The notes beneath the pieces are model-generated. The model was given only the letters and a program-made list of their open reading frames with translations, made no database searches and was not told where the DNA came from. A DNA stretch of 64,000 bases, from positions 24,822,941 to 24,886,940 of the forward strand of contig NC_088654.1 in assembly GCF_964019385.1 (NCBI RefSeq), in the 5' to 3' direction. Position numbers and translations under genes: made by a program. The DNA is from Sycon ciliatum (lineage: Eukaryota; Porifera; Calcarea; Leucosolenida; Sycettidae). Of this stretch, positions 5,950-52,713 are shown in pieces (position 1 is the stretch's first letter; each line of letters begins with the position of its first letter).

Positions 5950-7000
5950 CAGCCAAGTGCACCACTTGCATCAGTGAATAGCAGCAAGTTGGGGGACGGC
6001 GTGCACTTAGGGTGTAGGAAGAAGGACCGGCCGTTCTACTATTCCAGGAGCTAAGGCCATCAGCGAAGGTATTTGAGGCACTCTTCGGAGAGCTTGATCA
6101 GGTAATACGGCTGCCGGTACCAGTTGGCAAGTGACCACAATCTGCAATGTGCGTCCTGGGACTATCACTCTTGTAGCAAACGAGAGCTTTCCCAGAAGAT
6201 ACTCGAGTTGACATTGGGTAGTTGAAGCTGTGTTGAGAGTGGCCCGTAGGAGGTCGTGAAGCTTGGCAAGTTCGTCCATCGGCAGACTGATGTGAGCGCG
6301 CGGGTGTCCAGGATGACGCCGATAAACGTCAGGACGTGGGCTGGACCCTCCACTTTTGCTGACGCCAGAGAAACACCGAGGTATGTAAACACACGGCGCC
6401 GAGTAGCGAGTTGCTGGCGAGCTAACACAGGTCCAGAGCATACATCGAGGAAGCACTTTTGCTGACGCCAGAGAAACACCGAGGTATGTAAACGCACGGC
6501 GCCGAGTAGCGAGTTGCTGGCGAGCTAACACAAGTCCAGAGCATGCATGGAGACAGAAACGTTAGTCGAGGTATTTCCCGTAATGGGAAGATGCCAATAA
6601 CGTCAGGACTTGAGCTGGACCCTCCACTTTTGCTGGGGCCAGAGAAACACCGAGGTATGTAAACGCTCGGAGCAGAATAGCGAGTTGCTGGCGAGGTAAC
6701 ACAAGTCCAGAGCATGCATTGAGGAAGTAACATTAATTGAGGTATTCCCCGTGATGCAACAGGCGTGGGAGTGCGAACTGCCCGCACACAATCCATTCAC
6801 TGGCGGATGCGACAGAGTTCCATATAGCTGGCCTGGAGCGTAGTACAGTCTGAAGGGCAGGACGCTCTCATAACAGTATTGATCCTGCCAGCGGTTCAAC
6901 AAGGGCCACTCCTCCGGGCAGACGGGAATTCGGCAGAATGCACTTTTAACATTGAGCTTAGCAAGATACAGCGGGGCGAGCAATTGTCTAATCATGTTTG
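5950..7000 (-). pseudogene. Reverse transcriptase/RNase H remnant (Ngaro 1)
   Basis: Minus-strand fragments in several frames align with the better preserved RT of 56102-57274: a segment around LAKLNVKSAFCRIPVCPEEW (about 6890-6960), FTYLGVSLASAKVEGP-like copies, LLGKLSFATRVIVPGRT (about 6160-6215), and the RNase H start LFTDASGALG (about 5955-5985). Frameshifts and stops are abundant. One RT segment has been tandemly amplified (see 6351-6720). It is not functional. Confidence 0.7.
6351..6720. repeat. Amplified segment of RT (about 100-bp units, 3 copies)
   Basis: Three imperfect copies begin near 6351, 6454 and 6627, each with the sense text GAAACACCGAGGTATGTAAA and an AGTAGCGAGTTGCTGGCGAG-like tract. 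On the minus strand each encodes the RT segment containing FTYLGVSLASAK. The first two are adjacent and the third is separated by about 70 bp. Confidence 0.75.
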
Positions 7001-7424
7001 CAGCATTGTCATCTTGACATTGTGGAGAGACACGGTCTGCTGGAATGTAATCGTTGACACTTCGACCCTCCAGGCTTTACAAAGGGTGTGTCGTGTGTAA
7101 CTTCCCGTTCGACTAGGAACCGCATCTACGCCGGAACAGCACAGAGGCGAGAAAGGGGGTGAAGAACACGGGCCAGCTGTTTCAAGCCTGCTGCAAGAAA
7201 CGGATCGGCCAGCTGTTTCAAGCCTGCTGCAAGAAACGGATCGTTGCGCAGAAATATAATCTGGGTTAGCATGTGACCGTGTTAAATTCAATGGATCCCA
7301 GTTAGTTGAGTGGTTGCCGATGAAACCTACCACAACCCCACAATTACGACCATGTGCAACATACCTCCGGAGCATAGGATCAGGATGTGAGTCCAGTAAT
7401 TTTGAGAAGTGAGAAACTGAGTGC

Positions 7425-8600
7425 TTACACAGTTACTGATGAGGCCTTACACTTTGCCCTGGGATGCTCCTGTCGGCACTGGAGGTAGCACTGCCTGAGC
7501 TGACGCGTGCAAGCGCCGTACTCGTAGTAGCGGCATACGGTTGCGGTACGTGATGCGGATCTGTACTGGTGAGTAGGACGAAATGCGCACGGAAATGCTG
7601 GCGAGTGCACTGAGCTGCACTGCTGGCAGGCGGGTCGTGCTGTTCCAGTACACCGCGAGGCGCAGTTGCCACAAGTTGATATTGATAACCTGGCTTTGGA
7701 GATTTATTATATTTTCCATTGCTATCAGGTTCGGCTTAATTCCCTCTGTGCTGCGCTGATGAGTCCACAAAGGACGAAACAGTTGTCCGCAGATTGAGTA
7801 TTGATAACGTCCAGTTTCTAGGTGGCAAAAACTGGCGATTGGCCGCGACGATCGTGGCCAAATACGTCCACAGGCACTCGTGAAACGCGGTGAGGAACAG
7901 TGGAACACAGACCATTCATGAACACTGTCCAGGTCTCAACTCAAGTGCTACCGTCATGCAGCCTACGAAGCGCAGTTCTGGGTTCGGATTCAAATAAATG
8001 CTAGTGCGCCAGAAGAGCAACATATGAGGGGCTACGGAGTTGGAACGTCGCCGGAGCTGGACTGACTGCAACTGTATCGGGCAGCAGGAAATCGAAGTCC
8101 ACGAACTCGCCTCTCTGGACGCGATCGAGAAGGGCCCGTATAGGACAGTCAGGTTCACCTGCTGTTGGTGCTGCATGCGCATATGGCGGTCGTCACTGCA
8201 CCGGGCTCCCAGTAGGGTCCGGCCTGCTGGCGGCGAGCGGCGATACGGATCCAAGTAGAGCGAGGAGAAGCTGGGTGGCGTTGGTGACGGCAGTGGACAA
8301 CTCCCGTTGTTACTTCCAACAGAAAATCAAAGTCCACGAACTCGCCTCTCTGGATACGAATTACGATCGTCAGGCTCGCGCCTGCTGTTGCAGTGGTGGT
8401 GCTGCGTGGCGGCCGTCGCTGCGTTCGCAGTAGGCGGGCGGCGGAGCCAGGTAGAGCGAGGCGATCCGGAGAGGCTGGACGCTGGTTGGTGACGACGACA
8501 TTGTTTCAAGGCACAAACAAGGGTCGCTGAGATCGCGTGGAGGTACTTCATTTCAGGAAACCTGATGATGGCGCAAGCTAAAAAATCACAGTCGACGTTC
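7425..8600 (-). pseudogene. Gag-like remnant with zinc-knuckle (Ngaro 1)
   Basis: Minus-strand fragments match the gag of the second Ngaro element. VININLWQL (about 7690) corresponds to its VIDINMWQM, and a Cys-rich segment beginning VCRYYEYGAC (about 7450-7540) corresponds to its ICRNFNAGRC zinc-binding region. The matches switch frames, so the gene is dead. The 5' part (about 7910-8600) is only tentatively assigned. Confidence 0.5.
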
Positions 8601-8711
8601 CACTGTAGACGACGGCATTGTTTCAGGCACCAACAGGCACCAACAGGCGTCAATGAAGTCTGAATTGAAACGCAGAGATACGAGAATGCAAGCTTGAAAG
8701 TCTAACGAAAA

Positions 8712-8893
8712 GAAATTGTTTCGGGAACACCTGTTCCGCAAGTTGCACGCTCGAAAGTCCAAACAGCAATGACATGAAAGAGACATTGTACAGGATATTG
8801 AAGGGCGCGTGCCCACGTGACTCGCCCATGCGTACAGGTTGGGCCAGCTCGCTGGGCTGGCTGCTAACTCGCGTTAGCATGCTAACGCTCATT
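8712..8893. repeat. Split direct repeat B' (terminal copy)
   Basis: This is the 182-bp direct copy of 4825-5006. It forms the 5' terminus of Ngaro element 1, which reads on the minus strand. Confidence 0.9.
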
Positions 8894-9420
8894 TTGACTG
8901 ATTCGCTAAATTGTACCAGTATTTATTTACTACTAATACTAGTACTAGTATTTGGCACGTTGTGTGGATGTTGTTGTGAGTTCACACTGTCACTGTGCAA
9001 CTGTACACCATGTACACTGTTGTAGTCTAGTGTAGACCGAGGCTGTGGTGCTACCGGTAGTACTACTACTACAATGTACATGTACTATGATGTAGTACTG
9101 CATTGTACTCACGGATCACCAGTGCAATACTAATGTCTCAACGGATTAGCGACTTGAAGCTTTAGCGAAAATGAGTCGATCGCTAAATTCTCTAGGGTTT
9201 TCACCTTGTACTGCATGGATGTTTTAGTGTAAGTAGACCTGAGGCTGCTAAAACAGAGAGGTTCCAGGCAGAAATCATCATTCCGCCACAGACAACACGA
9301 GAAGGACACTCTCCTATCGCAGTACGTCTGCGCCAAGAAGGATGAAGGGAAGGCATGCACCATTCAATGGGCAGTCCACCGCAAAGCAGTGGCCTACAGC
9401 AACAACAGCAAAAGGTGCAA
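8894..9420. other. Host repeat with TTTAGCGA motifs, otherwise unassigned
   Basis: Both flanks of Ngaro element 1 (4160-4243 and 8894-9200) carry several copies of the octamer-like motif TTTAGCGA or its complement. They look like the two halves of one older MITE split by the insertion. Nothing coding was recognised. Confidence 0.35.
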
Positions 9421-10982
9421 CTAAGAGTTCATAACCCCAAGACTGTGCAACTCCTGACCAGTCCCTGTATGGAAGTCCGCTCGGCGGAATTCCTTCTGTA
9501 CGTCATTTTTGGTGCAGTGCGATGAGTCTTGCCTATGAATTCTTCTAAAATTTGCAGTCGAAACAGGATGCTTCCTCAGGTTAAACTGCCTAAACTGTGA
9601 TTTGATGTGAAGTAAAACAAAGCGCGCGATCCTCAAATAACTAAAAGACAAAACTGTTTTTTTCCGACGCCAATGCCCGGAACGGCGACTCTTCATCACC
9701 TTGTGCTTTCGCCAGTGCAGTGCGCCCATCCAGTCTCCTTGAAACTAATTTTCCCCTTGAACTCAGCATATGTCCGTGCTTTCCTCGAAGATAATTTCAA
9801 ATGATTGAGGGAATTGAGAATGCGTCGAAGGAGCATTTCTCGGCTGAGTTTCAAAGCTATCAGAATGTTTATCCTCGACGGCAATGCAATATTTTTGCCT
9901 CGCCAGTTGGCAAAAGCTACACTTCAAGTCTTCGTCCTCACTTCTTCCTGTCATTGATGTCCAGAGAGTCTTGGAGAAAGGGTTGGTTTCTGAGAAAGTA
10001 CAACTTGTACGTCTGAAAGGTCTTCAAAACGCTTCGAAATGATGGGGCTACAGCCTTGATTTAGCAGCGGTTCCGGGTATGGTTTCCAGAAATCGCAAAA
10101 AGCCCAAATTTAAATCCGAGGACAAGTTGCGCATGACGTAATGTAGGAATTTCACCGTGCGCTGGGGGATTGCCAGTTGCACACTCTTAGGGGTTATGAA
10201 CTTTTGATGCAACTTATGCCTGGCAGAAAAAAATGGCCATTGCGCAAACACCCAAGCACATCTGTGTCCAAAAGAAGAGTGACCTTTTGTCAAAGTGTCG
10301 CCACGAGAATTATCTGATTTCTTGCTGATCACTGACTCCTTCTTTCCCACCTTCTTGAGCTGTTCTCGATCAGAGTGAGACATGTTGGGAGATGATACAG
10401 GTGAGGTTTTGTACAGGCCATTGCTTCACGTTTGAAGCTCGCGAGATTGAATTCTTCATCCTTTCACTGCTTAGGGCCTTTTTGGAAGCCGTGTGCTTTA
10501 AGACACCAGGTCTTGGGGTCACATTTGCCGGGACCAGCGTTGGCAACATCAAGGTGATTGTTCGTTGACAACGAGGGGAGTACGCCTTTCTCAATTCCCA
10601 CCTCCACATCCTCCACAATACTCTGGTTGGCTTTGCTAGATGACGGAACGAAGCCCGGTCCATGCCTAAGGAGATCCAGCGCCACAGCTGAGACACGATT
10701 GCCTAAGTCAAGGACACATTGTGAGCGACCCTGTGCCTTGAGATTGTTGTGATTATCTGGCACAAGGTGACTGGAGGGGTGTGCGAACGTTGTGCACCAT
10801 AGACTCTGTACTTTACGAAAGAGCAGCCGTCGGGTGTCAAGTCGCTCGCATGGCAAAAAGTTCGATGCACAAGTCGTGCAGCCAAATATAGTCCTGCTTG
10901 GAGTGTGGGCATATCTCGGCTCTATGCGACGTGAACTGTCCATAGCGGTGTGCCTTCCACTAAAACTTCTCTTGGATGGCAT
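9421..10982 (-). pseudogene. Possible decayed retroelement ORF
   Basis: A minus-strand frame around 10500-10760 contains CVLDLGNRVSAVALDLLRHG and then FVP. This resembles the N-terminal NLS-x-LLxxGxxFVPTP region of Penelope-type and some other RTs. Downstream minus-strand frames (10370-9421) are broken and I do not recognise further RT motifs. The assignment rests on one short similarity and is weak. Confidence 0.25.
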
Positions 10983-21503: not shown

Positions 21504-21526
21504 GTAATAATAATAATAATAATAAT

Positions 21527-23247
21527 ATTAACTGGTTTTGAGGGAAAGAGACAAATGGGAAAAGTCTGAAGAAAAAATTGACTGTCACCACCAGGACTCG
21601 AACCAGGGACCCTCACTTGTAGCCAGCGATGCTCTAACCACTGAGCTATGGTGTAGTCGTCATCCAAGCAGAGACCGTTCAATGTTTTCTTCAGACTTCG
21701 TAACTCACACTTCCTGTGAATCCACACAGGCGGGTGGGACGCAGCCCTCACTGTACCCACACACTTCACGTACAAACTAGCACGCGGGGAGCCCCAAGTC
21801 ATAAAATATTAACTGGTTTTGAGGGAAAGAGACAAATGGGAAAAGTCTGAAGAAAAAATTGACTGTCACCACCAGGACTCGAACCAGGGACCCTCGCTTG
21901 TAGCCAGCGATGCTCTAACCACTGAGCTATGGTGTAGTCGTCATCCAAGCAGAGACCGTTCAATGTTTTCTTCAGACTTCGTAACTCACACTTCCTGTGA
22001 ATCCACACAGGCGGGTGGGACGCAGCCCTCACTGTACCCACACACTTCACGTACAAACTAGCACGCGGGGAGCCCCAAGTCATAAAATATTAACTGGTTT
22101 TGAGGGAAAGAGACAAATGGGAAAAGTCTAAAGAAAACATTGACTGTCACCACCAGGACTCGAACCAGGGACCCTCGCTTGTAGCCAGCAATGCTCTAAC
22201 CACTGAGCTATGGTGTAGTCGTCATCCAAGCAGAGACCGTTCAATGTTTTCTTCAGACTTCGTAACTCACACTTCCTGTGAATCCACACAGGCGGGTGGG
22301 ACGCAGCCCTCACTGTACCCACACACTTCACGTACAAACTAGCACGCGGGGAGCCCCAAGTCATAAAATATTAACTGGTTTTGAGGGAAAGAGACAAATG
22401 GGAAAAGTCTGAAGAAAAAATTGACTGTCACCACCAGGACTCGAACCAGGGACCCTCGCTTGTAGCCAGCGATGCTCTAACCACTGAGCTATGGTGTAGT
22501 CGTCATCCAAGCAGAGACCGTTCAATGTTTTCTTCAGACTTCGTAACTCACACTTCCTGTGAATCCACACAGGCGGGTGGGACGCAGCCCTCACTGTACC
22601 CACACACTTCACGTACAAACTAGCACGCGGGGAGCCCCAAGTCATAAAATATTAACTGGTTTTGAGGGAAAGAGACAAATGGGAAAAGTCTAAAGAAAAC
22701 ATTGACTGTCACCACCAGGACTCGAACCAGGGACCCTCGCTTGTAGCCAGCAATGCTCTAACCACTGAGCTATGGTGTAGTCGTCATCCAAGCAGAGACC
22801 GTTCAATGTTTTCTTCAGACTTCGTAACTCACACTTCCTGTGAATCCACACAGGCGGGTGGGACGCAGCCCTCACTGTACCCACACACTTCACGTACAAA
22901 CTAGCACGCGGGGAGCCCCAAGTCATAAAATATTAACTGGTTTTGAGGGAAAGAGACAAATGGGAAAAGTCTGAAGAAAAAATTGACTGTCACCACCAGG
23001 ACTCGAACCAGGGACCCTCGCTTGTAGCCAGCGATGCTCTAACCACTGAGCTATGGTGTAGTCGTCATCCAAGCAGAGACCGTTCAATGTTTTCTTCAGA
23101 CTTCGTAACTCACACTTCCTGTGAATCCACACAGGCGGGTGGGACGCAGCCCTCACTGTACCCACACACTTCACGTACAAACTAGCACGCGGGGAGCCCC
23201 AAGTCATAAAATATTAACTGGTTTTGAGGGAAAGAGACAAATGGGAA
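21527..23247 (-). repeat. 281-bp satellite built on a tRNA-derived SINE
   Basis: There are six full 281-bp units (starts 21527, 21808, 22089, 22370, 22651, 22932) and a 35-bp partial seventh. Each holds a 172-bp tRNA-derived SINE in minus orientation plus about 109 bp of linker. Units 3 and 5 share variants (TCTAAAGAAAACATTG, AGCAATG) absent from units 1, 2, 4 and 6, which indicates amplification as 562-bp dimers. The 80- to 94-residue frames repeated across it are satellite artefacts. Confidence 0.95.
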
Positions 23248-23300: not shown

Positions 23301-23335
<35 letters not shown>

Positions 23336-23710
23336 TTGTAAGAAAGGTTTGCTCCCCACACCGGAGCTCGCGCTATTCCGCCGACTTTACTTGACACTTG
23401 ACTGACTCACGACTGCCATCCAGAGCACACGAGAAGTCCATCGAACCTTCGACTCGGCAAACCTGCAAGAAAGCACCACTCCCTGCTCAATACACAGTGT
23501 TTCGGGGAATTCACCCCTCATCAGTTGAGCTTGAGTAGGCTGAGGAAGATTGTGCCTGAAGAGCACCACTTATATAGTGCTCTCCAGGCACAAACATCAC
23601 CAGGGATACAAACTTACAGAGACGCTCCGCTTCCAGCGCGACAAACACCTCGTGAACACCAGATAGTAGCGTGAGTCAGTGTCGCTCCTGGACGGTGAGA
23701 CTCACCTTTT
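23336..23710 (-). mobile_element. Retrozyme copy with hammerhead, minus strand
   Basis: This is the reverse complement of the right-hand part of the retrozyme at 34165-34836, covering one hammerhead and about 200 bp upstream, 5'-truncated, with AAT tracts on both sides. The sense strand has TATATAAG (about 23570-23577) some 40 bp before the ribozyme. It contains no protein-coding frame, as known for retrozymes, which are nonautonomous and spread as circular RNAs. Confidence 0.75.
23485..23530 (-). ncRNA. Hammerhead ribozyme, type I
   Basis: On the minus strand the order is stem I GCUCAA, core CUGAUGA, stem II GGGG/CCCC with a 6-nt loop, core GAAA, stem III ACA/UGU with loop CUG, cleavage triplet GUA, then stem I' UUGAGC. 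All invariant core bases, the 10.1-11.1 G-C pair and the A15.1-U16.1 pair are present. It is identical to the copy at 34639-34684. Confidence 0.9.
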
Positions 23711-23733
23711 TAATTATTATTATTATTATTATA

Positions 23734-23857
23734 CGAAGTCTGAAGAAAATGTTGAACGGTCTCTGCTTGGATGACGACTACACCATAGCTCAGTGGTTAG
23801 AGCATCGCTGGCTACAAGCGAGGGTCCCTGGTTCGAGTCCTGGTGGTGACAGTCAAG
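23734..23857 (+). repeat. tRNA-derived SINE, 3'-truncated
   Basis: The text matches the SINE at 33801-33974 from its 5' end through the tRNA-like domain (A box TAGCTCAGTGGTTAGAGC, B box GGTTCGAGTCC) to GACAGTCAA, where it joins a Penelope 3' fragment instead of its own tail. Confidence 0.85.
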
Positions 23858-24246
23858 TGGAGAACACAAGGCAAGGAGACGCAGGAGGAAGCACAGGCAC
23901 GGCACAGAACGAATCAAGGAGAGGGAAGCGGTGTCGCGAGGAGATGGAGACTGATGACGACGAATACGAGTGCGATGGGATGGACGGCGGCATTGGAATG
24001 GAGGTGGAGGATGAGAGTAGTGATGAGGAGGAGTTTGATGTTGACAAGAGGAAGTCTGCAGTGTACAAGCATTTGGTGTCCAGTCCAGAATGTCGTAAGG
24101 TGTTTGACGATTCCTGGTTTAGTGTTATTCGTTGCGCACGTTTCTTCAAGCAATTGCAGGTGTTGGAAGCTGTGTATATTCGTACTCGTGACCCTGTGCT
24201 ATGTAAACAGAAAGAAAACGTTGTATCACTCACACTCTTCAAGTAA
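23858..24246 (+). pseudogene. Penelope-like element ORF, C-terminal fragment
   Basis: The frame has an acidic tract and then KSAVYKHLVSSPECRKVFDD, FSVIRCARFFKQLQVLEAVYI and PVLCKQKENVVSLTLF before the stop. This is the conserved end of Penelope GIY-YIG ORFs and aligns with 51797-52273. The reading frame is open back through the preceding SINE, forming a chimeric 191-codon ORF by chance. RT and the GIY-YIG motif are missing. A hammerhead remnant follows about 200 bp downstream, as in the Penelope copy at 48-52 kb. Confidence 0.75.
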
Positions 24247-32884: not shown

Positions 32885-33272
32885 TTTTAAACTCGGATGT
32901 TGAGCCATAAATAAATGTAGAAGAGAAAAGGACATATGGATACGAGTTAAGAGTAACTCTCCATCACTGTAACATGATACTATATACAGTCAGAAAGTGC
33001 AATAACTAGGCGCAAAACTGACAGAGTACTGAGACATTCGACGTCCTGACACCTAACTTCAACACATGTCCGTAGCGCTAACCGACAGCCTTCCAACTTG
33101 GAAGGTTCAAGGTTTTGGAAAGACCAAAGAGGGGAAGGCAAGCGCAACGAAAACGAGCAAAAGCTACAGTCCCAACGGAACAAAGAATGTCGATTGTTAC
33201 TGGATGATGACGAGACAAGTACGATATTTGACAAAGCGGTCTAACTACAATTCGAAGCAGCAAAGCAGCACA
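32885..33272 (-). repeat. Element E, left arm of inverted pair
   Basis: This pairs with 33403-33762 as a nearly perfect inverted repeat of about 356 bp, with a 130-bp spacer. It is noncoding and AAT-flanked. The extra bases 32885-32916 (ACTCGGATGTTGAGCC...) are missing from the other arm. Confidence 0.85.
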
Positions 33273-33402
33273 CCACCCAACTTGGGTGGGTCATAAATAT
33301 CAAAGATAAGTAAAGAAAGGGAAGCTTTGCGAAAACGAATTGTACAAGCCGAAAGCCAAACTCCTACAGTACTCCTCATGCATGACATTGTGATGGACTA
33401 GT

Positions 33403-33758
33403 TGTGCTGCTTTGCTGCTTCGAATTGTAGTTAGACCGCTTTGTCAAATATCGTACTGGTCTCGTCATCGTCCAGTGACAATCGACATTCTTTGTTCCGT
33501 TGGGACTGTAGCTTTTGCTCGTTTTCGTTGCGCTTGCCTTCCCCCATTTGGTCTTTCCAAAACCTTGAACCTTCCAAGTTGGAAGGCTGTCGGTTAGCGC
33601 TACGGACATGTGTTGAAGTTAGGTGTCAGGACGTCGAATGTCTCAGTACTCTGTCAGTTTTGCGCCTAGTTATTGCACTTTCTGACTGTATATAGTATCA
33701 TGTTACAGTGATGGAGAGTTACTCTTAACTCGTATCCATATGTCCTTTTCTCTTCTAC

Positions 33759-33802: not shown

Positions 33803-33974
33803 GAAGTCTGAAGAAAGCGTTGAACGGTCTCTGCTGGGATGACGACTACACCATAGCTCAGTGGTTAGAGCATCGCTGGCTACAAGCGAGGGTCCCTGGT
33901 TCGAGTCCTGGTGGTGACAGTCAATTTTTTCGTCAGACTTTTCCCGTTTGTCTCTTTCCCTCAAACCAGTTAAT
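33801..33974 (+). repeat. tRNA-derived SINE, full length with (AAT)n tail
   Basis: Its 174 bp comprise a 5' leader, a tRNA-like domain (33845-33918) with A box TAGCTCAGTGGTTAGAGC and B box GGTTCGAGTCC, a body ending TCTCTTTCCCTC, and an AAT tail. A 5-bp anticodon stem TCGCT/AGCGA is intact but the loop lacks U33, so it is not a tRNA gene. AGTCTGAAGAAA in the leader pairs with TTTTTTCGTCAGACT after the tRNA part, closing the whole domain in a stem. Confidence 0.9.
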
Positions 33975-33996
33975 AATAATAATAATAATAATAATA

Positions 33997-34391
33997 CGAA
34001 GTAGTGGTTGCGACTTCGGCGATGATTTGTAAGAGAGGTTTGCTCCCCACACCGGAGCTCGCGCTATTCCGCCGACTTTACTTGACACTTGACTGGCTCA
34101 CGACTGCCATCCAGAGCACACGAGAAGTCCATCGAACCTTCGACTCGGCAAACCTGCAAGAAAGCAACTGATGAGGGGTGAATTCCCCGAAACACTGTGT
34201 ATTGAGCAGGGAGTGGTGCTTTCTTGCAGGTTTGCCGAGTCGAAGGTTCGATGGACATCTCGTGTGCTCTGGATGGCAGTCGTGAGTCAGTCAAGTGTCA
34301 AGTAAAGTCGACGGAATAGCGCGAGCTCCGGTGTGGGGAGCAAACCTTTCTTACAAATCATCGCCGAAGTCGCAACCACTACTTCGTACTG
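33997..34391. repeat. Palindrome centred on a hammerhead
   Basis: 33997-34166 is the reverse complement of 34208-34391 with few mismatches. The 40-bp centre holds the first hammerhead core of the retrozyme. The outer ends read TACGAAGTAGTGGTTGCGAC and complement. Confidence 0.85.
34165..34204 (+). ncRNA. Hammerhead ribozyme, stem I shortened
   Basis: The core (CUGAUGA at 34168-34174, stem II GGGG/CCCC, GAAA, ACA-CUG-UGU, cleavage triplet GUA) is identical to the intact copies, but the 5' side is AAGCAA, so stem I has only three pairs (CAA/UUG). The change lies at the palindrome junction. Activity as a monomer is doubtful. Confidence 0.75.
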
Positions 34392-34592
34392 TTGTGCCCA
34401 GCGCGGGCTTGCGACTAGTTGGTTTGGAGGTGACAGCGTTGCGAATGACCGAGGGTCCTCGACGTCTGTCTCACCGTCCAGGAGCGACACTGACTCACGC
34501 TGCTATCTGGTGTTCACGAGGTGTTTATCGCGCTGGAAGCGGAGCGTCTCTGTAAGTTTGTATCCCTGGTGATGTTTGTGTCTGGGGAGCAC

Positions 34593-34600
34593 TATATAAG
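34593..34600 (+). promoter_or_regulatory. TATA-like box of retrozyme
   Basis: TATATAAG lies 39-46 bp before the second hammerhead. The minus-strand copy has the same element at the same distance. Its position suggests transcription starting just before the ribozyme. Confidence 0.45.
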
Positions 34601-34638
34601 TGATGCTCTTCAGGCACAATCTTCCTCAGCCTACTCAA

Positions 34639-34684
34639 GCTCAACTGATGAGGGGTGAATTCCCCGAAACACTGTGTATTGAGC
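34639..34684 (+). ncRNA. Hammerhead ribozyme, type I (intact)
   Basis: The 46-nt motif comprises stem I GCUCAA/UUGAGC (6 bp), CUGAUGA, stem II GGGG-UGAAUU-CCCC, GAAA, a 3-bp stem III ACA/UGU with loop CUG, and cleavage after GUA (A34678). Every conserved core residue is present. Very short stem III is typical of ribozymes in Penelope-like elements and retrozymes. Confidence 0.92.
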
Positions 34685-34850
34685 AGGGAGTGGTGCTTTC
34701 TTGCAGGTTTGCCGAGTCGAAGGTTCGATGGACTTCTCGTGCGCTTTGGATGGCAGTCGTGAGTCAGTCAAGTGTCAAGTAAAGTCGGCGGAATAGCGCG
34801 AGCTCCGGTGTGGGGAGCAAACCTTTCTTACAATAATAATAATAATAATA

Positions 34851-35291
34851 CAAAAAAAAAGTATTGTCTACGCATGCATCTACGCAAGAGTCACCACCAG
34901 CCAATTAGGACATGTGTCAAAGTATTGAACGTTTTCGTTCCCTTCTTGTCAAAATACTACAGGGAATGATGGAAATAAGCTAAAAGACTACAACTATAAG
35001 GAAAAGAAGTTCAGAAATATATCACTCCAATTATGTGTAGAAGTGACACGAAAAAAATAGATGTGAAGAATCAAGAAAACAGCATGTAAATCCAATAAGT
35101 GACAAAAACGTAGTGACAAGAAAAAGAGAGAAATATCAAGAGATCTATTTCGCACCTTCACGACGAACAGTGCCAAACAACTGCAAAGACAACAAGGGAA
35201 GGAAACGAAAACGTTCAATACTTTGACACATGTCCTAATTGGCTGGTGGTGACTCTTGCGTAGATGCATGCGTAGACAATACTTTTTTTTG
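34851..35291. repeat. Inverted repeat, about 90-bp arms
   Basis: 34851-34940 is the reverse complement of 35202-35291 (CAAAAAAAAAGTATTGTC on the outside), with a spacer of about 260 bp. It has AAT tracts on the left and, after about 30 bp, on the right. Confidence 0.85.
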
Positions 35292-48032: not shown

Positions 48033-48524
48033 GTGAGTATTTCTAATGTTTTAAGGACACATGCCCAATAAGCACATATAGCATAGCGTCTTGCATCAAT
48101 TAACCCTCTGCGTGCTGAGTACGAGTTCAATAGCGCTTTATGCATGACCTGATCCACTACTTGGTCCGCGTCAGCGATATTGTCGCTCATCTTTCAGCTT
48201 TGTTTATGTGTCGCCAATGCTTACTTGGCCGCCCATTTCATCCCAATTTTGGTTAGTAAGTTAGTTTACTAGTACTGTATAACACCTTTATTTCGGTGTA
48301 ATTTAAATTTCGGTAACTTCGGTACTGGTCCTAGATCACCTTATTTAACATTACACCTAAATTTTCCGAAATACCAAAAATATGTAAAAATCATGAAAAT
48401 CATTGTCAAATTTAAAAAAGAGTCGGCGTGGAGAAAGCAATTTTATTAGTGCAATTAGGAGTATAATCGATGCAGACATGGCCAAACAACAACGAGTTCA
48501 TGGAATTTTTAAGGATTTTTATGT

Positions 48525-48564
48525 TATTCAAAATCGATTTTCGTGTTCCGCTCATCAGTGAATA
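48525..48564 (-). ncRNA. Hammerhead-type motif in Penelope (minus arm)
   Basis: Reverse complement of 52474-52513, identical in sequence, about 200 nt after the ORF stop. Confidence 0.7.
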
Positions 48565-48764
48565 GTATCGGAACTGAGGGTACTGTGTACAAAAATAGAA
48601 CATTTTATAACAGCATAATTAATTAAAAGTGTGAACAACAAAGGAAGTGCTACAGCATTACATAATAGGTGTCAAACATAGTGCTAACGTATATAACTGA
48701 GTGCAGCCACAAAGCAAGAGGTGATACAGTGCAACATGACACAACATTTACATCTGATAACCAG

Positions 48765-50109
48765 CTACGAGAACAACTTTAGCGCGACTACATGCTTCTT
48801 TTGTTTACAAAGAACAGGATTATGCACACGAATACATACAGCTTCCAGAACCTTCAACTGCTTAACATAACTTGCACGGCACAAAACAGAAAAGTGAGAA
48901 TCATCGTACACACTACGACAATCTGGACGTGATAACAAGTGACAAAATACAGCTGACTTTTTGCTCACGTCGCTCTCTTCCGTCTTATCCCGCTCCTTTC
49001 CTTCGATCTCCTCCGCCTTATCCTCGTCCTCCGTCTCATCTTCATCATCATCGTCCTCATCACCACCATCATCATCATCAGTCACTTCCTCATCATCCGT
49101 TTGATGCTCAGTCTCACTGCACTCCTTATCAGCCTCCAACATGGCTCCATCATCTCCACCAGCATCACAAGTCGTTTGACCGCTGCTCCGCGTCACCGTT
49201 GCTGGGTTCTCTGTTACTGCACACCCATTTCCACTGTCCATTTTGCGTGGGCCAAGTCCATTCCGTTCATAAATTTCAAGTGAATAGTTTGCTGTGCTTC
49301 TTCTGGGTCTATGGGTGAGGATATTGGTTTCATTTTGGTTTGTCGATGATCTCCCCCTCTGTCCAGACACAGTCGGCACCGTGGATCCCAGCACCGGGGG
49401 GACCACCGTCTCGGTAGTCACCAAAGGTAAAGGGGGTGGCTCAGGCGGAGGCAAGGGCAACTGCCGATTTGAAGGTTCAGTGTCTCTCGGTGGCCCCTCC
49501 TCCATTCCAGGACGATGATGTTGTGCTAGAGTAGGCTCCGCTGCCGTTTGCAGTGGGTCGAGAAGTGGTGGCCAGGTCAATGATGGCAAACCCACCCAAG
49601 CCCCAGCCACCCACGGCACCCCAGGTGGTGGGGCCGGTGGTGGCACGGGAACAGCCGGCGCTGTCGGCACAGCGTGTTTGTCTACTAAGCTAACTGGGTT
49701 CTTACACGGCCTACCACGCTTTGGCCGCTTTGCTCTGGCTGCTGGTGGTAATAAGTGCAACGGCACATGTTGTCTGATACGTGCGTTCAGGTGTTGAAGA
49801 GTCCTACCAACGTACCGGGCAGCACAATTCCGGCACTCAAAGAGATAAACCAAATGGCTTGAAAGCTGGGGAGGTAGGACATCCTTCCTCACCATGAACG
49901 CACGTACCGCGGTGAACACGGGGATGAAGTGGGCAGCAAAGTATGTTTTATTGACTAGGGTCTTGATAGCTCTGGACATGCTGACAGACGCGTTGCCTTT
50001 CCAAGGCAGGCATAAGTAGATAGGACACTTTCGAGGACCTGTGAATGTATCTTTGTTATTAGATTCTTGCTTCAGTATTTTGTTCAATAAGTCATGTGGG
50101 TATCCATTC
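48765..50109 (-). CDS. Penelope ORF, C-terminal part with GIY-YIG endonuclease
   Basis: The frame continues the RT of 50856-51711 and stops at 48765. About 70 residues in, HLVYLFECRNCAARYVGRTL and NARIRQHV form the GIY-YIG core (VYLF...YVGRT). The conserved end SAVFCHLLSRPDC ... KQLKVLEAVCIR ... PVLCKQKKHVVALKLF closes the domain. Between them lie over 200 residues of Pro-rich then Asp/Glu-rich sequence, including PKRGRPCKNP, an AT-hook-like motif. In most Penelope proteins this gap is short. The frame is open for 440 codons from its first internal Met (50087). Confidence 0.8.
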
Positions 50110-50113
50110 TTAA

Positions 50114-50851
50114 CCTCTTTAGCGCGAGCGTCGTACTAGTACGACGCACATGAGTTGCATGCCCCACGGCCGTCGTACTAGTACGACGCGCGCTGTACAC
50201 TGTACAGTGAACCTGCATCTCATAGTCGTGGGGTCCGTGTTGAGTCCATAGTGACTTGTTCAAACTATCGCAACTCACTCAATACTTGGTCGATTCTCAC
50301 AATCGAAACATGTATCTGCAAGAGAAAACTCTCAGCTGGCGATAGAAACAATCGCCGAAGCGATGCGACTACCGGTTGTTGAGATATGCGACTCGACACG
50401 GCAAATTTCAACTCGATTTTTTTGCGCAGTCTGCAGAACGCGTATTTTCCATCATGGATCCTTTTTGCGCTACCTGCTGCCATGGAAACAAGATTCAAAT
50501 GATGGTAGTGGATCCCGTGAGTCCTCACAAAAAATTTGAGCTCGATACGAGCAAGGAGACCGAAATGGCAGCTGAATATTTGAGCTTGGTTAGTTTTGGC
50601 CGTGCTCAAGTCTGTCGAGCGCGTGGATGAAGTTTGCCAGACTGTAGCACGGGGTTTTGGTTTCGCTCCGAGCTGGGTTTGATACCAGTTTGTCCCTCGT
50701 CTCACGACCTTTCCAGGAAGCTCAAGATCGTGGAATTCGTCCAAGGGAAGGTAAAGTTATCGATCCTTGAGCAGCTAGTACTTTCATGGGAAAATGCGAC
50801 TTTTACAGGTGTTGACGTGGGGCGCGCTCAGGTAGCGTCGTGCTAAAGAGG
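50114..50851. mobile_element. piggyBac-type MITE inside Penelope
   Basis: TTAA at 50110-50113 and 50852-50855. The ends CCTCTTTAGC and GCTAAAGAGG are inverted repeats, and GTCGTACTAGTACGAC palindromes follow the left end. Collapsing to one TTAA restores the Penelope frame across the junction (...SIFL|KNGYPHD...), so the insertion is exact and younger than the Penelope copy. No transposase is visible. Confidence 0.85.
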
Positions 50852-50855
50852 TTAA

Positions 50856-51711
50856 GGAATATTGATCTGAGAAATTCCAGCTCGTCGTTGAGCTTCGTTT
50901 CAGAGCAGAGCCGCTTTGCTCTCCCCACCAGGTTACGCACCAGGTTCACCTTGTATTGATGTGAGCAATATGAATCATAGACGATGTACTGCCCAGTGAA
51001 AGTGGGCTTTCGGTAGACTGATGTTACGACACTGTTATTAGATTTTTCTACCTGCACATCCAGAAAGGCGAGTTTGTTGTCATGCTCATGCTCACATGTG
51101 TATCTAAGCGCTGGGTGTAGGCTGTTTAGATGATGAAAGAATGTGTCACATTGCTCAACGGAATCAAAATATGTAAAAGAATCATCGACGAAACGAACGT
51201 ATACCTTAGGCCACATCGACTCATTGATCAAGCATTCACAGTATCCAACGAATATATTTGCCAAAACGGGTCCAAGGGGGGACCCCATGGCCACACCGTC
51301 CACCTGCCGATACATTATGTCGTTGAACGAGAACTCTACGCCAGTAGTGACCAAGGACATTAACTTACGGAAGGCTGTCTCCGACAACCAAGGAGTATCT
51401 ACCGAATCATTTCGATACAGTACATCAGCACAAATATCGATTGTCTCATCCAATGGTACGTTCGTGAACAATGATACTACGTCAAATGAACACATATGAG
51501 CACTAACGGGAACCTGATGAGAGCGCAAGATATCTACAAACTGGAAACTGTCTTTCACTGTGCGCGTACAGTAATAACTTTGTACGACCCCGAGAATAAC
51601 ACAGAGCCACTTAGAAATGCTGTACTGTGGAGATGAAACCATTGATAGTATCGGTCGCAAAGGACAATTGGTTTTATGTATTTTTGGCAAGCCATAAAGT
51701 CGTGGACGGAC
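50856..51711 (-). pseudogene. Penelope reverse transcriptase, N-terminally truncated
   Basis: The minus strand reads RPRLYGLPKIHKTNCPLRPI, SFDVVSLFTNVPLDETI, VDGVAMGSPLGPVLANIFV, YVRFVDDSFTYFD (catalytic FVDD intact), LAFLDVQV and VYRKPTFTGQYI, the Penelope RT signature in order. The fingers region before RPRLYG is missing at the junction with the inverted arm. The ORF is cut after SIFL by the piggyBac-type MITE. Confidence 0.9.
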
Positions 51712-52602
51712 GAATATCCTCACCCATAGACCCAGAAGAAGCACAGCAAACTATTCACTTGAAATTTATGCACGGAATGGACTTGGCCCACGCAAAATGG
51801 ACAGTGGAAATGGGTGTGCAGTAGCAGAGAACCCAGCAACGGTGACGCGGAGCAGCGGTCAAACGACTTGTGATGCTGGTGGAGATGATGGAGCCATGTT
51901 GGAGGCTGATAAGGAGTGCAGTGAGACTGAGCATCAAACGGATGATGAGGAAGTGACTGATGATGATGATGGTGGTGATGAGGACGATGATGATGAAGAT
52001 GAGACGGAGGACGAGGATAAGGCGGAGGAGATCGAAGGAAAGGAGCGGGATAAGACGGAAGAGAGCGACGTGAGCAAAAAGTCAGCTGTATTTTGTCACT
52101 TGTTATCACGTCCAGATTGTCGTAGTGTGTACGATGATTCTCACTTTTCTGTTTTGTGCCGTGCAAGTTATGTTAAGCAGTTGAAGGTTCTGGAAGCTGT
52201 ATGTATTCGTGTGCATAATCCTGTTCTTTGTAAACAAAAGAAGCATGTAGTCGCGCTAAAGTTGTTCTCGTAGCTGGTTATCAGATGTAAATGTTGTGTC
52301 ATGTTGCACTGTATCACCTCTTGCTTTGTGGCTGCACTCAGTTATATACGTTAGCACTATGTTTGACACCTATTATGTAATGCTGTAGCACTTCCTTTGT
52401 TGTTCACACTTTTAATTAATTATGCTGTTATAAAATGTTCTATTTTTGTACACAGTACCCTCAGTTCCGATACTATTCACTGATGAGCGGAACACGAAAA
52501 TCGATTTTGAATAACATAAAAATCCTTAAAAATTCCATGAACTCGTTGTTGTTTGGCCATGTCTGCATCGATTATACTCCTAATTGCACTAATAAAATTT
52601 AA
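51712..52602 (+). repeat. Inverted copy of Penelope 3' end
   Basis: This 891-bp reverse complement of 48437-49327 contains an open frame (51797-52273) for the acidic tract and conserved C-terminus of the GIY-YIG ORF and the plus-strand hammerhead. The near identity of the arms implies a recent origin. Confidence 0.9.
52474..52513 (+). ncRNA. Hammerhead-type motif in Penelope (plus arm)
   Basis: Stem I UAUUCA/UGAAUA (6 bp), CUGAUGA, stem II starting G-C but otherwise weak (GCGGAACAC), GAAA, short stem III AAU-CG-AUU, cleavage position U52507. The layout is the same as in the retrozyme; the weak stem II may limit activity. Confidence 0.7.
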
Positions 52603-52713
52603 AAAAATCAACTATTACTTGTATACTGGTATAGTACATGTACCGGTATACTACATATTGTAACAAAATGATATGTGGAGCCTAGCCGGAGATATTACCG
52701 GTAGTGCAAGAGC

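What the first reader, a model, noticed from the sequence alone, without database searches (positions are those of the whole stretch)
34165..34836. Retrozyme dimer with textbook type I hammerhead ribozymes
Seen: two direct hammerhead cores; the second (34639-34684) has all invariant bases, a 6-bp stem I, a 4-bp stem II, a 3-bp stem III and a GUA cleavage triplet. The predicted cut sites are exactly 477 nt apart and no protein is encoded. Known: metazoan retrozymes are tandem hammerhead-bearing units copied through circular RNA, probably by Penelope RT. Inference: this locus can yield a 477-nt circRNA, transcribed from the TATATAAG about 40 bp before the ribozyme.
Basis: partly seen in the sequence, partly recalled or inferred. 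Interest (0 to 1): 0.85.

Follow-up and report, generated by a model that had tools for sequence, protein, structure and literature searches.

The report
Mirror-image ribozyme retroelement copied from RNA rings
A tiny non-coding jumping element carries a self-cutting RNA, and its copies look as if an enzyme of the Penelope family copied one RNA ring round and round from both sides of a DNA break, which would explain how such elements spread in animal genomes.

Summary
In detail: a 477-nt direct repeat with two type I hammerhead cores, the second complete. It belongs to a retrozyme family with 4,553 hammerhead-pattern sites in this 538-Mb genome. In the 39 best-matching loci plus the window, 36 distinct copies are head-to-head arrays (<- | ->), mostly in (TAA)n, with target-site duplications. 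Their outer ends fall at two unit positions about 32 nt apart: 32 of 36 have one of each, none two of a kind. PLEs here carry a 31-nt tail on just one of two inverted ends (11 of 11 examined, a chosen set), and published biochemistry shows a PLE starting reverse transcription at two internal sites flanking such a tail, on both DNA strands. Units share one genotype across both arms (27 of 31; re-paired mean 34%). I conclude that PLE machinery mobilises the retrozyme: each strand of a staggered cut primes at one of two sites on one RNA ring, rolls round it, and the cDNAs are end-joined. The window copy is probably not a source: its first ribozyme has a broken stem I and its TATA box lies after it. 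Rfam does not recognise the ribozyme; no RNA data were available.

The parts
33995..34166 (-). Inverted arm of the element: unit positions 16-187; outer end at site B (unit 187)
34165..34833 (+). Direct arm, 1.40 units (unit 441 -> 155); outer end at site A (unit 155)
34165..34204 (+). Hammerhead 1: intact core, stem I only 3 bp because the head-to-head junction cuts it; predicted cut after 34201
34639..34684 (+). Hammerhead 2, type I, stems 6/4/3 bp, GUA; predicted cut after 34678
34202..34678 (+). 477-nt unit (cut site to cut site), the predicted ring; circular fold -194.5 kcal/mol, z=-6.4 against 60 dinucleotide shuffles
34593..34600 (+). TATATAAG, putative promoter; lies after hammerhead 1 and before hammerhead 2
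34357..34388 (+). A-to-B 'tail' segment between the two inferred internal RT start sites (unit 155 and 187); holds hairpin CGAAGT(34365)...ACTTCG(34386)
33971..33996 (+). (TAA)n target, left side
34834..34851 (+). (TAA)n target, right side
23331..23701 (-). Second, single-armed copy (unit 267 -> 160, site A) with an intact hammerhead (core 23524-23500, cut at 23491)
48420..52594 (-). Head-to-head PLE with 890-nt arms 100% complementary (48439-49328 / 51710-52599); B (tail) end at 48420, A end near 52594, 12-nt TSD candidate AAATTTAAAAAA at 48408-48419 and 52595-52606; candidate helper family
50803..51750 (-). PLE reverse transcriptase frame (PF00078, E=1.2e-7)
48765..50135 (-). PLE C-terminal frame; GIY-YIG PF01541 E=0.0013, 19.4 bits, below the curated cut-off of 22.6

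Best explanation
A non-autonomous retrozyme mobilised in trans by PLE machinery through two-site, two-strand target-primed reverse transcription of an RNA ring. Steps: (1) arrays are transcribed from the internal TATA box [inferred]; (2) hammerheads release 477-nt monomers, which a host ligase closes into rings [inferred from the motif and from published animal retrozymes]; (3) a PLE RT-endonuclease makes a staggered cut, leaving a TSD of about 11-15 nt (microhomology included), in AT-rich DNA, preferably (TAA)n [TSD and target shown from genome sequence; enzyme inferred]; (4) the 3' end of each DNA strand primes at a different one of two internal RNA sites, A and B, about 32 nt apart [the A+B rule is shown; priming is inferred]; (5) both reverse transcriptases run round the same ring, for up to about 7 units per arm [shared genotype shown; one ring inferred]; (6) the two cDNA ends are joined through microhomology or with short inserts, leaving a head-to-head array [junction pattern shown; process inferred]. 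Internal initiation removes the puzzle of how an RNA without a 3' end can be target-primed.
For: Outer ends: of 36 distinct two-armed elements 32 are A+B, 0 A+A, 0 B+B, 4 other. Of the 4, L058 is A+B when its interruption is bridged and L051's second element is cut by the end of the fetched stretch; L032 and L060 are real exceptions with one canonical end. A second sample, chosen only for an exact hammerhead pattern, 8 loci: 6 A+B, one diverged subfamily (L095) with a tail offset of 33 nt, one exception, L093. Inner ends scatter, 1 of 72 within 3 nt of the ribozyme cut. Orientation flips among the first 100 listed C1 sites: 16 head-to-head, 0 tail-to-tail. PLE: 11 of 11 copies examined carry the ~31-nt tail on exactly one end, clean TSDs of 12-14 nt in 6 (chosen set, see report); among 126 listed PLE RT matches, neighbours within 7 kb flip '-+' 10 times, '+-' 0. 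Genotype: both arms agree fully in 27 of 31 elements; 2000 re-pairings mean 0.34, largest 0.54; of 76 variants at sites covered by >=4 units, 57 are in one unit, 12 in all (8 of these across both arms), 7 in some. 155 of 156 unit joints at the cut site exact. Targets: (TAA/TTA)4+ beside 24 of 36 elements against 35 of 1560 background positions; AT 0.87 against 0.54. Published biochemistry: a purified PLE cuts and extends both strands and starts RT at two adjacent internal sites that bound the tail (PMC11167929).
Against: No RNA or ring data; species unnamed; helper protein not tested. The letters at A and B are not alike in the retrozyme and the window's PLE; only the geometry is. The published PLE accepts linear unprocessed RNA, its hammerhead is dispensable in vitro, and no start-site difference between strands was seen. 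Arms disagree in 4 of 31 elements (L035, which looks composite, L051, L057, L069); variants shared by only some units occur in L035, L040 and L042; 11 of 50 single-unit variants recur in another element. Rfam does not recognise the ribozyme. Gene conversion between arms could mimic a shared template. Three of four PLE pairs that I did not fetch have one alignment that stops short of A.
Confidence: 0.78

Rival explanations
1. PLE machinery copies linear multimeric read-through transcripts rather than rings; arrays grow because the parent array is copied as such.
For: A published PLE uses unprocessed linear RNA in vitro; PLE loci are transcribed as repeats.
Against: 12 variants are in every covered unit of an element, 8 of them across both arms, while the family majority lacks them, which needs a one-unit bottleneck; L046 has 11 of 11 units with 387T. 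139 perfect 47-nt hammerheads stand in the fetched arrays and should cut multimers.
Confidence: 0.12
2. The head-to-head form arises by snap-back self-priming, as was proposed (on an antisense template) for rotifer Penelope elements.
For: PMC3846280 argues for self-priming from palindromes at the inverted junction (passages). Snap-back would give both arms one genotype.
Against: Snap-back predicts near-equal inner positions and one initiation site; inner positions of the two arms often differ widely, arm lengths are hardly correlated (r=0.14), outer ends are A on one side and B on the other, and TSDs are direct.
Confidence: 0.08
3. The arrays are an ordinary satellite or DNA-level palindrome that expanded by unequal crossing-over; the hammerhead is a passenger.
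For: Tandem arrays of up to about seven units; a segmental twin of the window locus exists (L031).
Against: Scattered over many contigs with fixed outer ends and TSDs; scattered inner junctions; uniform genotype per element.
Confidence: 0.02

Closest known systems
Metazoan non-LTR retrozymes (Cervera and de la Pena 2020, PMC7229834)
   Same: Type I hammerhead in short non-coding tandem repeats; predicted highly self-paired ring; thousands of sites; PLEs present in the same genome; PLE named there as candidate mobiliser.
   Different: Unit 477 nt and 53% GC (published repeats 150-450 bp, GC<50%); head-to-head arrays with a two-site end rule. The word 'inverted' does not occur in that paper's main text.
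Penelope/Poseidon PLEs (PMC3846280; PMC11167929)
   Same: Head-to-head inverted ends, tail of about 31 nt on one end, TSDs, AT-rich targets, internal initiation at two adjacent sites.
   Different: The retrozyme has no RT or endonuclease; PMC11167929 does not treat rings or retrozymes ('retrozyme' 0, 'circular' 0 in its main text); both papers call the tail optional.
Plant LTR retrozymes (PMC4918200, search listing only; described in passages of PMC7761336)
   Same: Hammerhead-released RNA ring as intermediate.
   Different: Type III hammerheads, LTRs, PBS and PPT, 4-bp TSD.

Membership tests
Metazoan non-LTR retrozyme | Type I hammerhead in the repeat unit | tested here: met
   Descriptor scan; 139 perfect 47-nt hammerheads in fetched arrays; but Rfam's model is negative and cleavage was not assayed
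Metazoan non-LTR retrozyme | Short tandem, non-coding repeats | tested here: met
Metazoan non-LTR retrozyme | No primer-binding site or polypurine tract | not tested
   not searched
Metazoan non-LTR retrozyme | TSD longer than 4 bp when present | tested here: met
Metazoan non-LTR retrozyme | Descriptive range: 150-450 bp, GC<50% (given in the paper as a description, not as a criterion) | tested here: not met
   477 nt, 53% GC; treated as variation, hence 'new variant'
Metazoan non-LTR retrozyme | Linear and circular monomer RNA in tissue | not testable with these tools
   no RNA data
PLE (as the element itself) | ORF with RT and GIY-YIG | tested here: not met
   no frame of 120 aa or more in the unit; so not filed as a PLE
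PLE integration signature (works like) | Head-to-head ends, tail of ~31 nt on one end, AT-rich target, TSD | tested here: met
PLE (window element 48420-52594) | RT plus GIY-YIG, inverted ends with tail | tested here: inconclusive
   RT met, ends met, GIY-YIG below cut-off

The most novel reading that the evidence does not exclude
Bidirectional rolling-circle target-primed reverse transcription: two PLE reverse transcriptases occupy two mutually exclusive start sites ~31-32 nt apart on one and the same RNA ring, each primed by one strand of a staggered cut, and chase each other round the ring; autonomous PLEs may do the same on rings of about 3.5 kb, which would explain their pseudo-LTRs, tails and head-to-head tandems such as C1:30314860-30324080 (RT spacing 3551 in both arms).
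Probability: 0.5. Interest if true: 0.87.

Novelty: new variant of a known kind. Interest (0 to 1): 0.75.

Why it matters
Which enzyme moves animal retrozymes, and how a reverse transcriptase can start on RNA without an end, were left open in the 2020 paper (passages). Here genome anatomy points to an answer and links it to the 2024 PLE biochemistry: internal start sites make a ring usable as a template. It also gives a quantitative rule (one A end and one B end per two-armed insertion) that any model of PLE integration must explain, and an assay that a PLE laboratory could run at once.

Tried and rejected
Rfam scan for the hammerhead: negative at the three settings tried; control on the 7756 hammerhead positive though under gathering score. 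Single-strand fold of the 46-mer: uninformative. Search of the genome with Rfam RF00163 did not complete. Hammerhead conservation in the two diverged copies L093 and L095 (0 of 25-75 differences per arm in 47 positions) is VOID as evidence: these loci were picked by an exact 40-nt hammerhead pattern. I replaced it by a count with a neighbouring 40-mer; the second neighbour did not complete. Ends of three other PLE families (L098-L103): my guessed stretches showed no inverted match, so they neither support nor contradict. Likeness of the retrozyme's A/B region to the window PLE: only eyed, none seen; no systematic search for a PLE family that shares the retrozyme's end was made. Strand of the TAA target against A/B: no clear association (TTA: BA 7, AB 3, Ax 1; TAA: BA 6, AB 6, xB 1). 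RT run-off from a linear monomer at the cut site is rejected by the inner ends (1 of 72). Papers: PMC7229834 parts 1-3 of 6 plus passages; PMC11167929 parts 1-3 of 4 (60-62) plus a word search (69); PMC3846280, PMC7761336 and PMC8490949 passages only; msu232 not held (59). Searches behind 'not seen in print': (open-licence library only; subscription journals largely missing).

Full report
WHAT IS THERE. The motif is far beyond chance: four structured type I motifs in 64 kb against a mean of 0.025 in 40 resamples. Rfam does not report the retrozyme's hammerhead, although it scores another hammerhead in the window at 7756 (30.6 bits, under its gathering score of 34); I rely on the invariant core and the three stems. 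On conservation: the hammerhead 40-mer has 4553 sites with up to 2 mismatches, the adjacent 40-mer (unit 10-49, nearer the 3' end and so if anything expected more often) 4058; the first 100 exact sites listed reach C1:16.28 Mb for the hammerhead and C1:30.42 Mb for the neighbour, i.e. exact hammerheads are about 1.9 times as dense. One neighbour only; suggestive of constraint, not proof.

Immediately upstream of the first core lies an inverted partial copy, 33995-34166. The junction falls inside stem I of the first hammerhead, leaving 3 bp. The TATATAAG at 34593 lies after that hammerhead. So the locus itself is unlikely to release a 477-nt monomer from that promoter; 30 of 46 distinct element records have an arm with TATATAAG followed by two or more intact hammerheads.

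THE FAMILY. The hammerhead pattern has 2311 forward and 2242 reverse sites, backward control 0. The DNA search listed 152 matches, a lower bound. I fetched 39 loci around them, the highest-scoring ones, and analysed them with two window copies. Among the first 100 exact pattern sites listed on C1, neighbours within 1.5 kb are ++ 15, -- 10, -+ 16 and +- 0; same-strand spacing is 477-480 in 21 of 25. Of the 59 clusters there 35 are single sites and 16 hold a head-to-head flip, so many copies are short and the fetched sample is biased to long ones.

ENDS. One search found 41 two-armed elements, 37 with one outer end at unit 145-165 (A) and one at 178-195 (B). After three loci that repeat others (L031, L045, L050; five elements) were dropped, 36 remain: 32 A+B, none with two of a kind, 4 others. 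A ends have modes 152, 155 and 160, B ends 187 and 183. The four others: L058 is A+B across an interruption, L051's second element is cut by the end of the stretch, L032 (34 and A) and L060 (117 and B) are exceptions. As a check on ranking I fetched 8 of the first 11 head-to-head clusters in coordinate order on C1 (the three left out are 5951732, 5961718 and 10560276): 6 are A+B, L095 is a diverged subfamily with 36 nt against 3 nt between arm end and a 7-nt TSD candidate, L093 departs. Of ten single-direction rows, six are plain single-armed copies and use either site (WIN2, L041, L047, L064 at A; L033, L034 at B). Inner ends spread over the unit (72 ends, 1 within 3 nt of the cut, chi-square against uniform p=0.05); of 36 inner junctions 18 overlap by 1-7 nt, 4 are flush and 14 hold 1-59 extra nt.

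TARGETS. (TAA/TTA)4+ lies within 30 nt of 24 of 36 elements against 35 of 1560 background positions; flanking AT 0.87 against 0.54. Outside microsatellites TSD candidates of 11-15 nt are visible (for example L053, L059, L065, L067); the lengths include microhomology and are upper bounds.

ONE TEMPLATE. Units differ by 0.0034 per site within an arm, 0.0024 between opposite arms of one element and 0.0083 between loci. At 13 diagnostic sites both arms agree fully in 27 of 31 comparable elements; re-pairing arms of different elements gives a mean of 0.34 and at most 0.54 in 2000 trials (L031, L045, L050 and the diverged L060 piece dropped). Variants at sites covered by at least four units are found in one unit (57), in all units (12; 8 across both arms, 4 in one-armed L041 and L064) or in some (7: four in L035, whose right arm is only 95% identical and looks like an older separate piece, two at one site in L040, one in L042). 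Eleven of 50 single-unit variants (L035 left out) recur in another element, some as family-level alleles. 155 of 156 unit joints at the cut site are exact. A single-unit bottleneck, i.e. a ring, is the simplest source; gene conversion is not excluded.

THE HELPER. The window holds a head-to-head PLE, 48420-52594, with an RT frame (PF00078 E=1.2e-7) and a GIY-YIG match below cut-off. One search shows 14 further inverted pairs of this PLE's 3' end. I fetched the ends of 10; with the window copy, 11 of 11 have one end that stops at or beside GCACTAAT and the other with a tail of about 31 nt (counted by eye); clean TSDs of 12-14 nt in 6, microsatellite flanks in 4, imperfect in 1. The set was not random: of the four pairs left out, one (C2:40283844) has the same two end points in the listing, and three (C9:8996676, C4:40642502, C8:7536769) reach the tail on one side but stop short of A on the other (query 948, 910, 925), so they may be exceptions. 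Among the 126 listed PLE RT matches, neighbours within 7 kb flip -+ 10 times and +- never, and tandems occur. Many listed frames are open and over 1000 aa, so helpers may be active.

LITERATURE. PMC3846280 (passages) describes inverted ends, TSDs of 8-10 bp and a 31-bp tail optionally on one inverted end. PMC11167929 shows with purified protein that a PLE cuts and extends both strands, prefers ATT, and starts at two adjacent internal RNA sites that bound the tail, in an AC-rich stem loop. The retrozyme's A-B segment folds into CGAAGU-loop-ACUUCG (-5.5 kcal/mol); the window PLE's tail hardly folds (-0.4), hence I do not build on the hairpin. PMC7229834 proposes PLEs as mobilisers from co-existence and shared hammerheads and leaves the priming open. 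Nothing that I read describes head-to-head retrozymes or the A+B rule; the library is open-licence only.

MECHANISM AND VERDICT. Shown from sequence: architecture, the A+B rule, targets, TSDs, shared genotype. Inferred: transcription, cleavage, ring closure, the PLE as enzyme, one ring for both arms. I hold retrozyme identity as near certain, PLE mobilisation as very likely, and one ring copied from both sides as likely. The unit is larger and richer in GC than the published animal retrozymes, and its arrays are inverted: a new variant of a known kind with a mechanistic lesson. The withdrawal of the hammerhead-conservation P values does not change my odds, since they rest on the ends and genotypes.

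Noticed in passing
window 7750-7793 (+): Another type I hammerhead with a GUC cleavage site (Rfam Hammerhead_1 30.6 bits, E=1.7e-6, below gathering score); no second copy among the repeats of 6500-9500.
   Followed up: partly
window 21519-23247: Tandem array of a 281-nt tRNA-bearing unit, 6.1 copies at 99%; dispersed copies at 23781 and 33849, the latter next to (TAA)n beside the retrozyme.
   Followed up: no
window 33000-33675 and 34853-35290: Two foldback elements with 273-nt (98%) and 93-nt (99%) inverted arms; the second lies next to (TAA)n.
   Followed up: no
L031 (C13:25384900-25387600): Near-identical twin of the window locus about 529 kb away with the same inner junction and ends: probably a segmental duplication rather than a second insertion.
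   Followed up: partly
G000 C1:30314860-30324080: PLE RT genes in a head-to-head tandem (--++), spacing 3551 in both arms, as if a ring of ~3.5 kb had been copied from both sides.
   Followed up: partly
window 23656-24246: Frame that looks by eye like the C-terminal part of the window's PLE, no Pfam match; perhaps a second PLE family.
   Followed up: no
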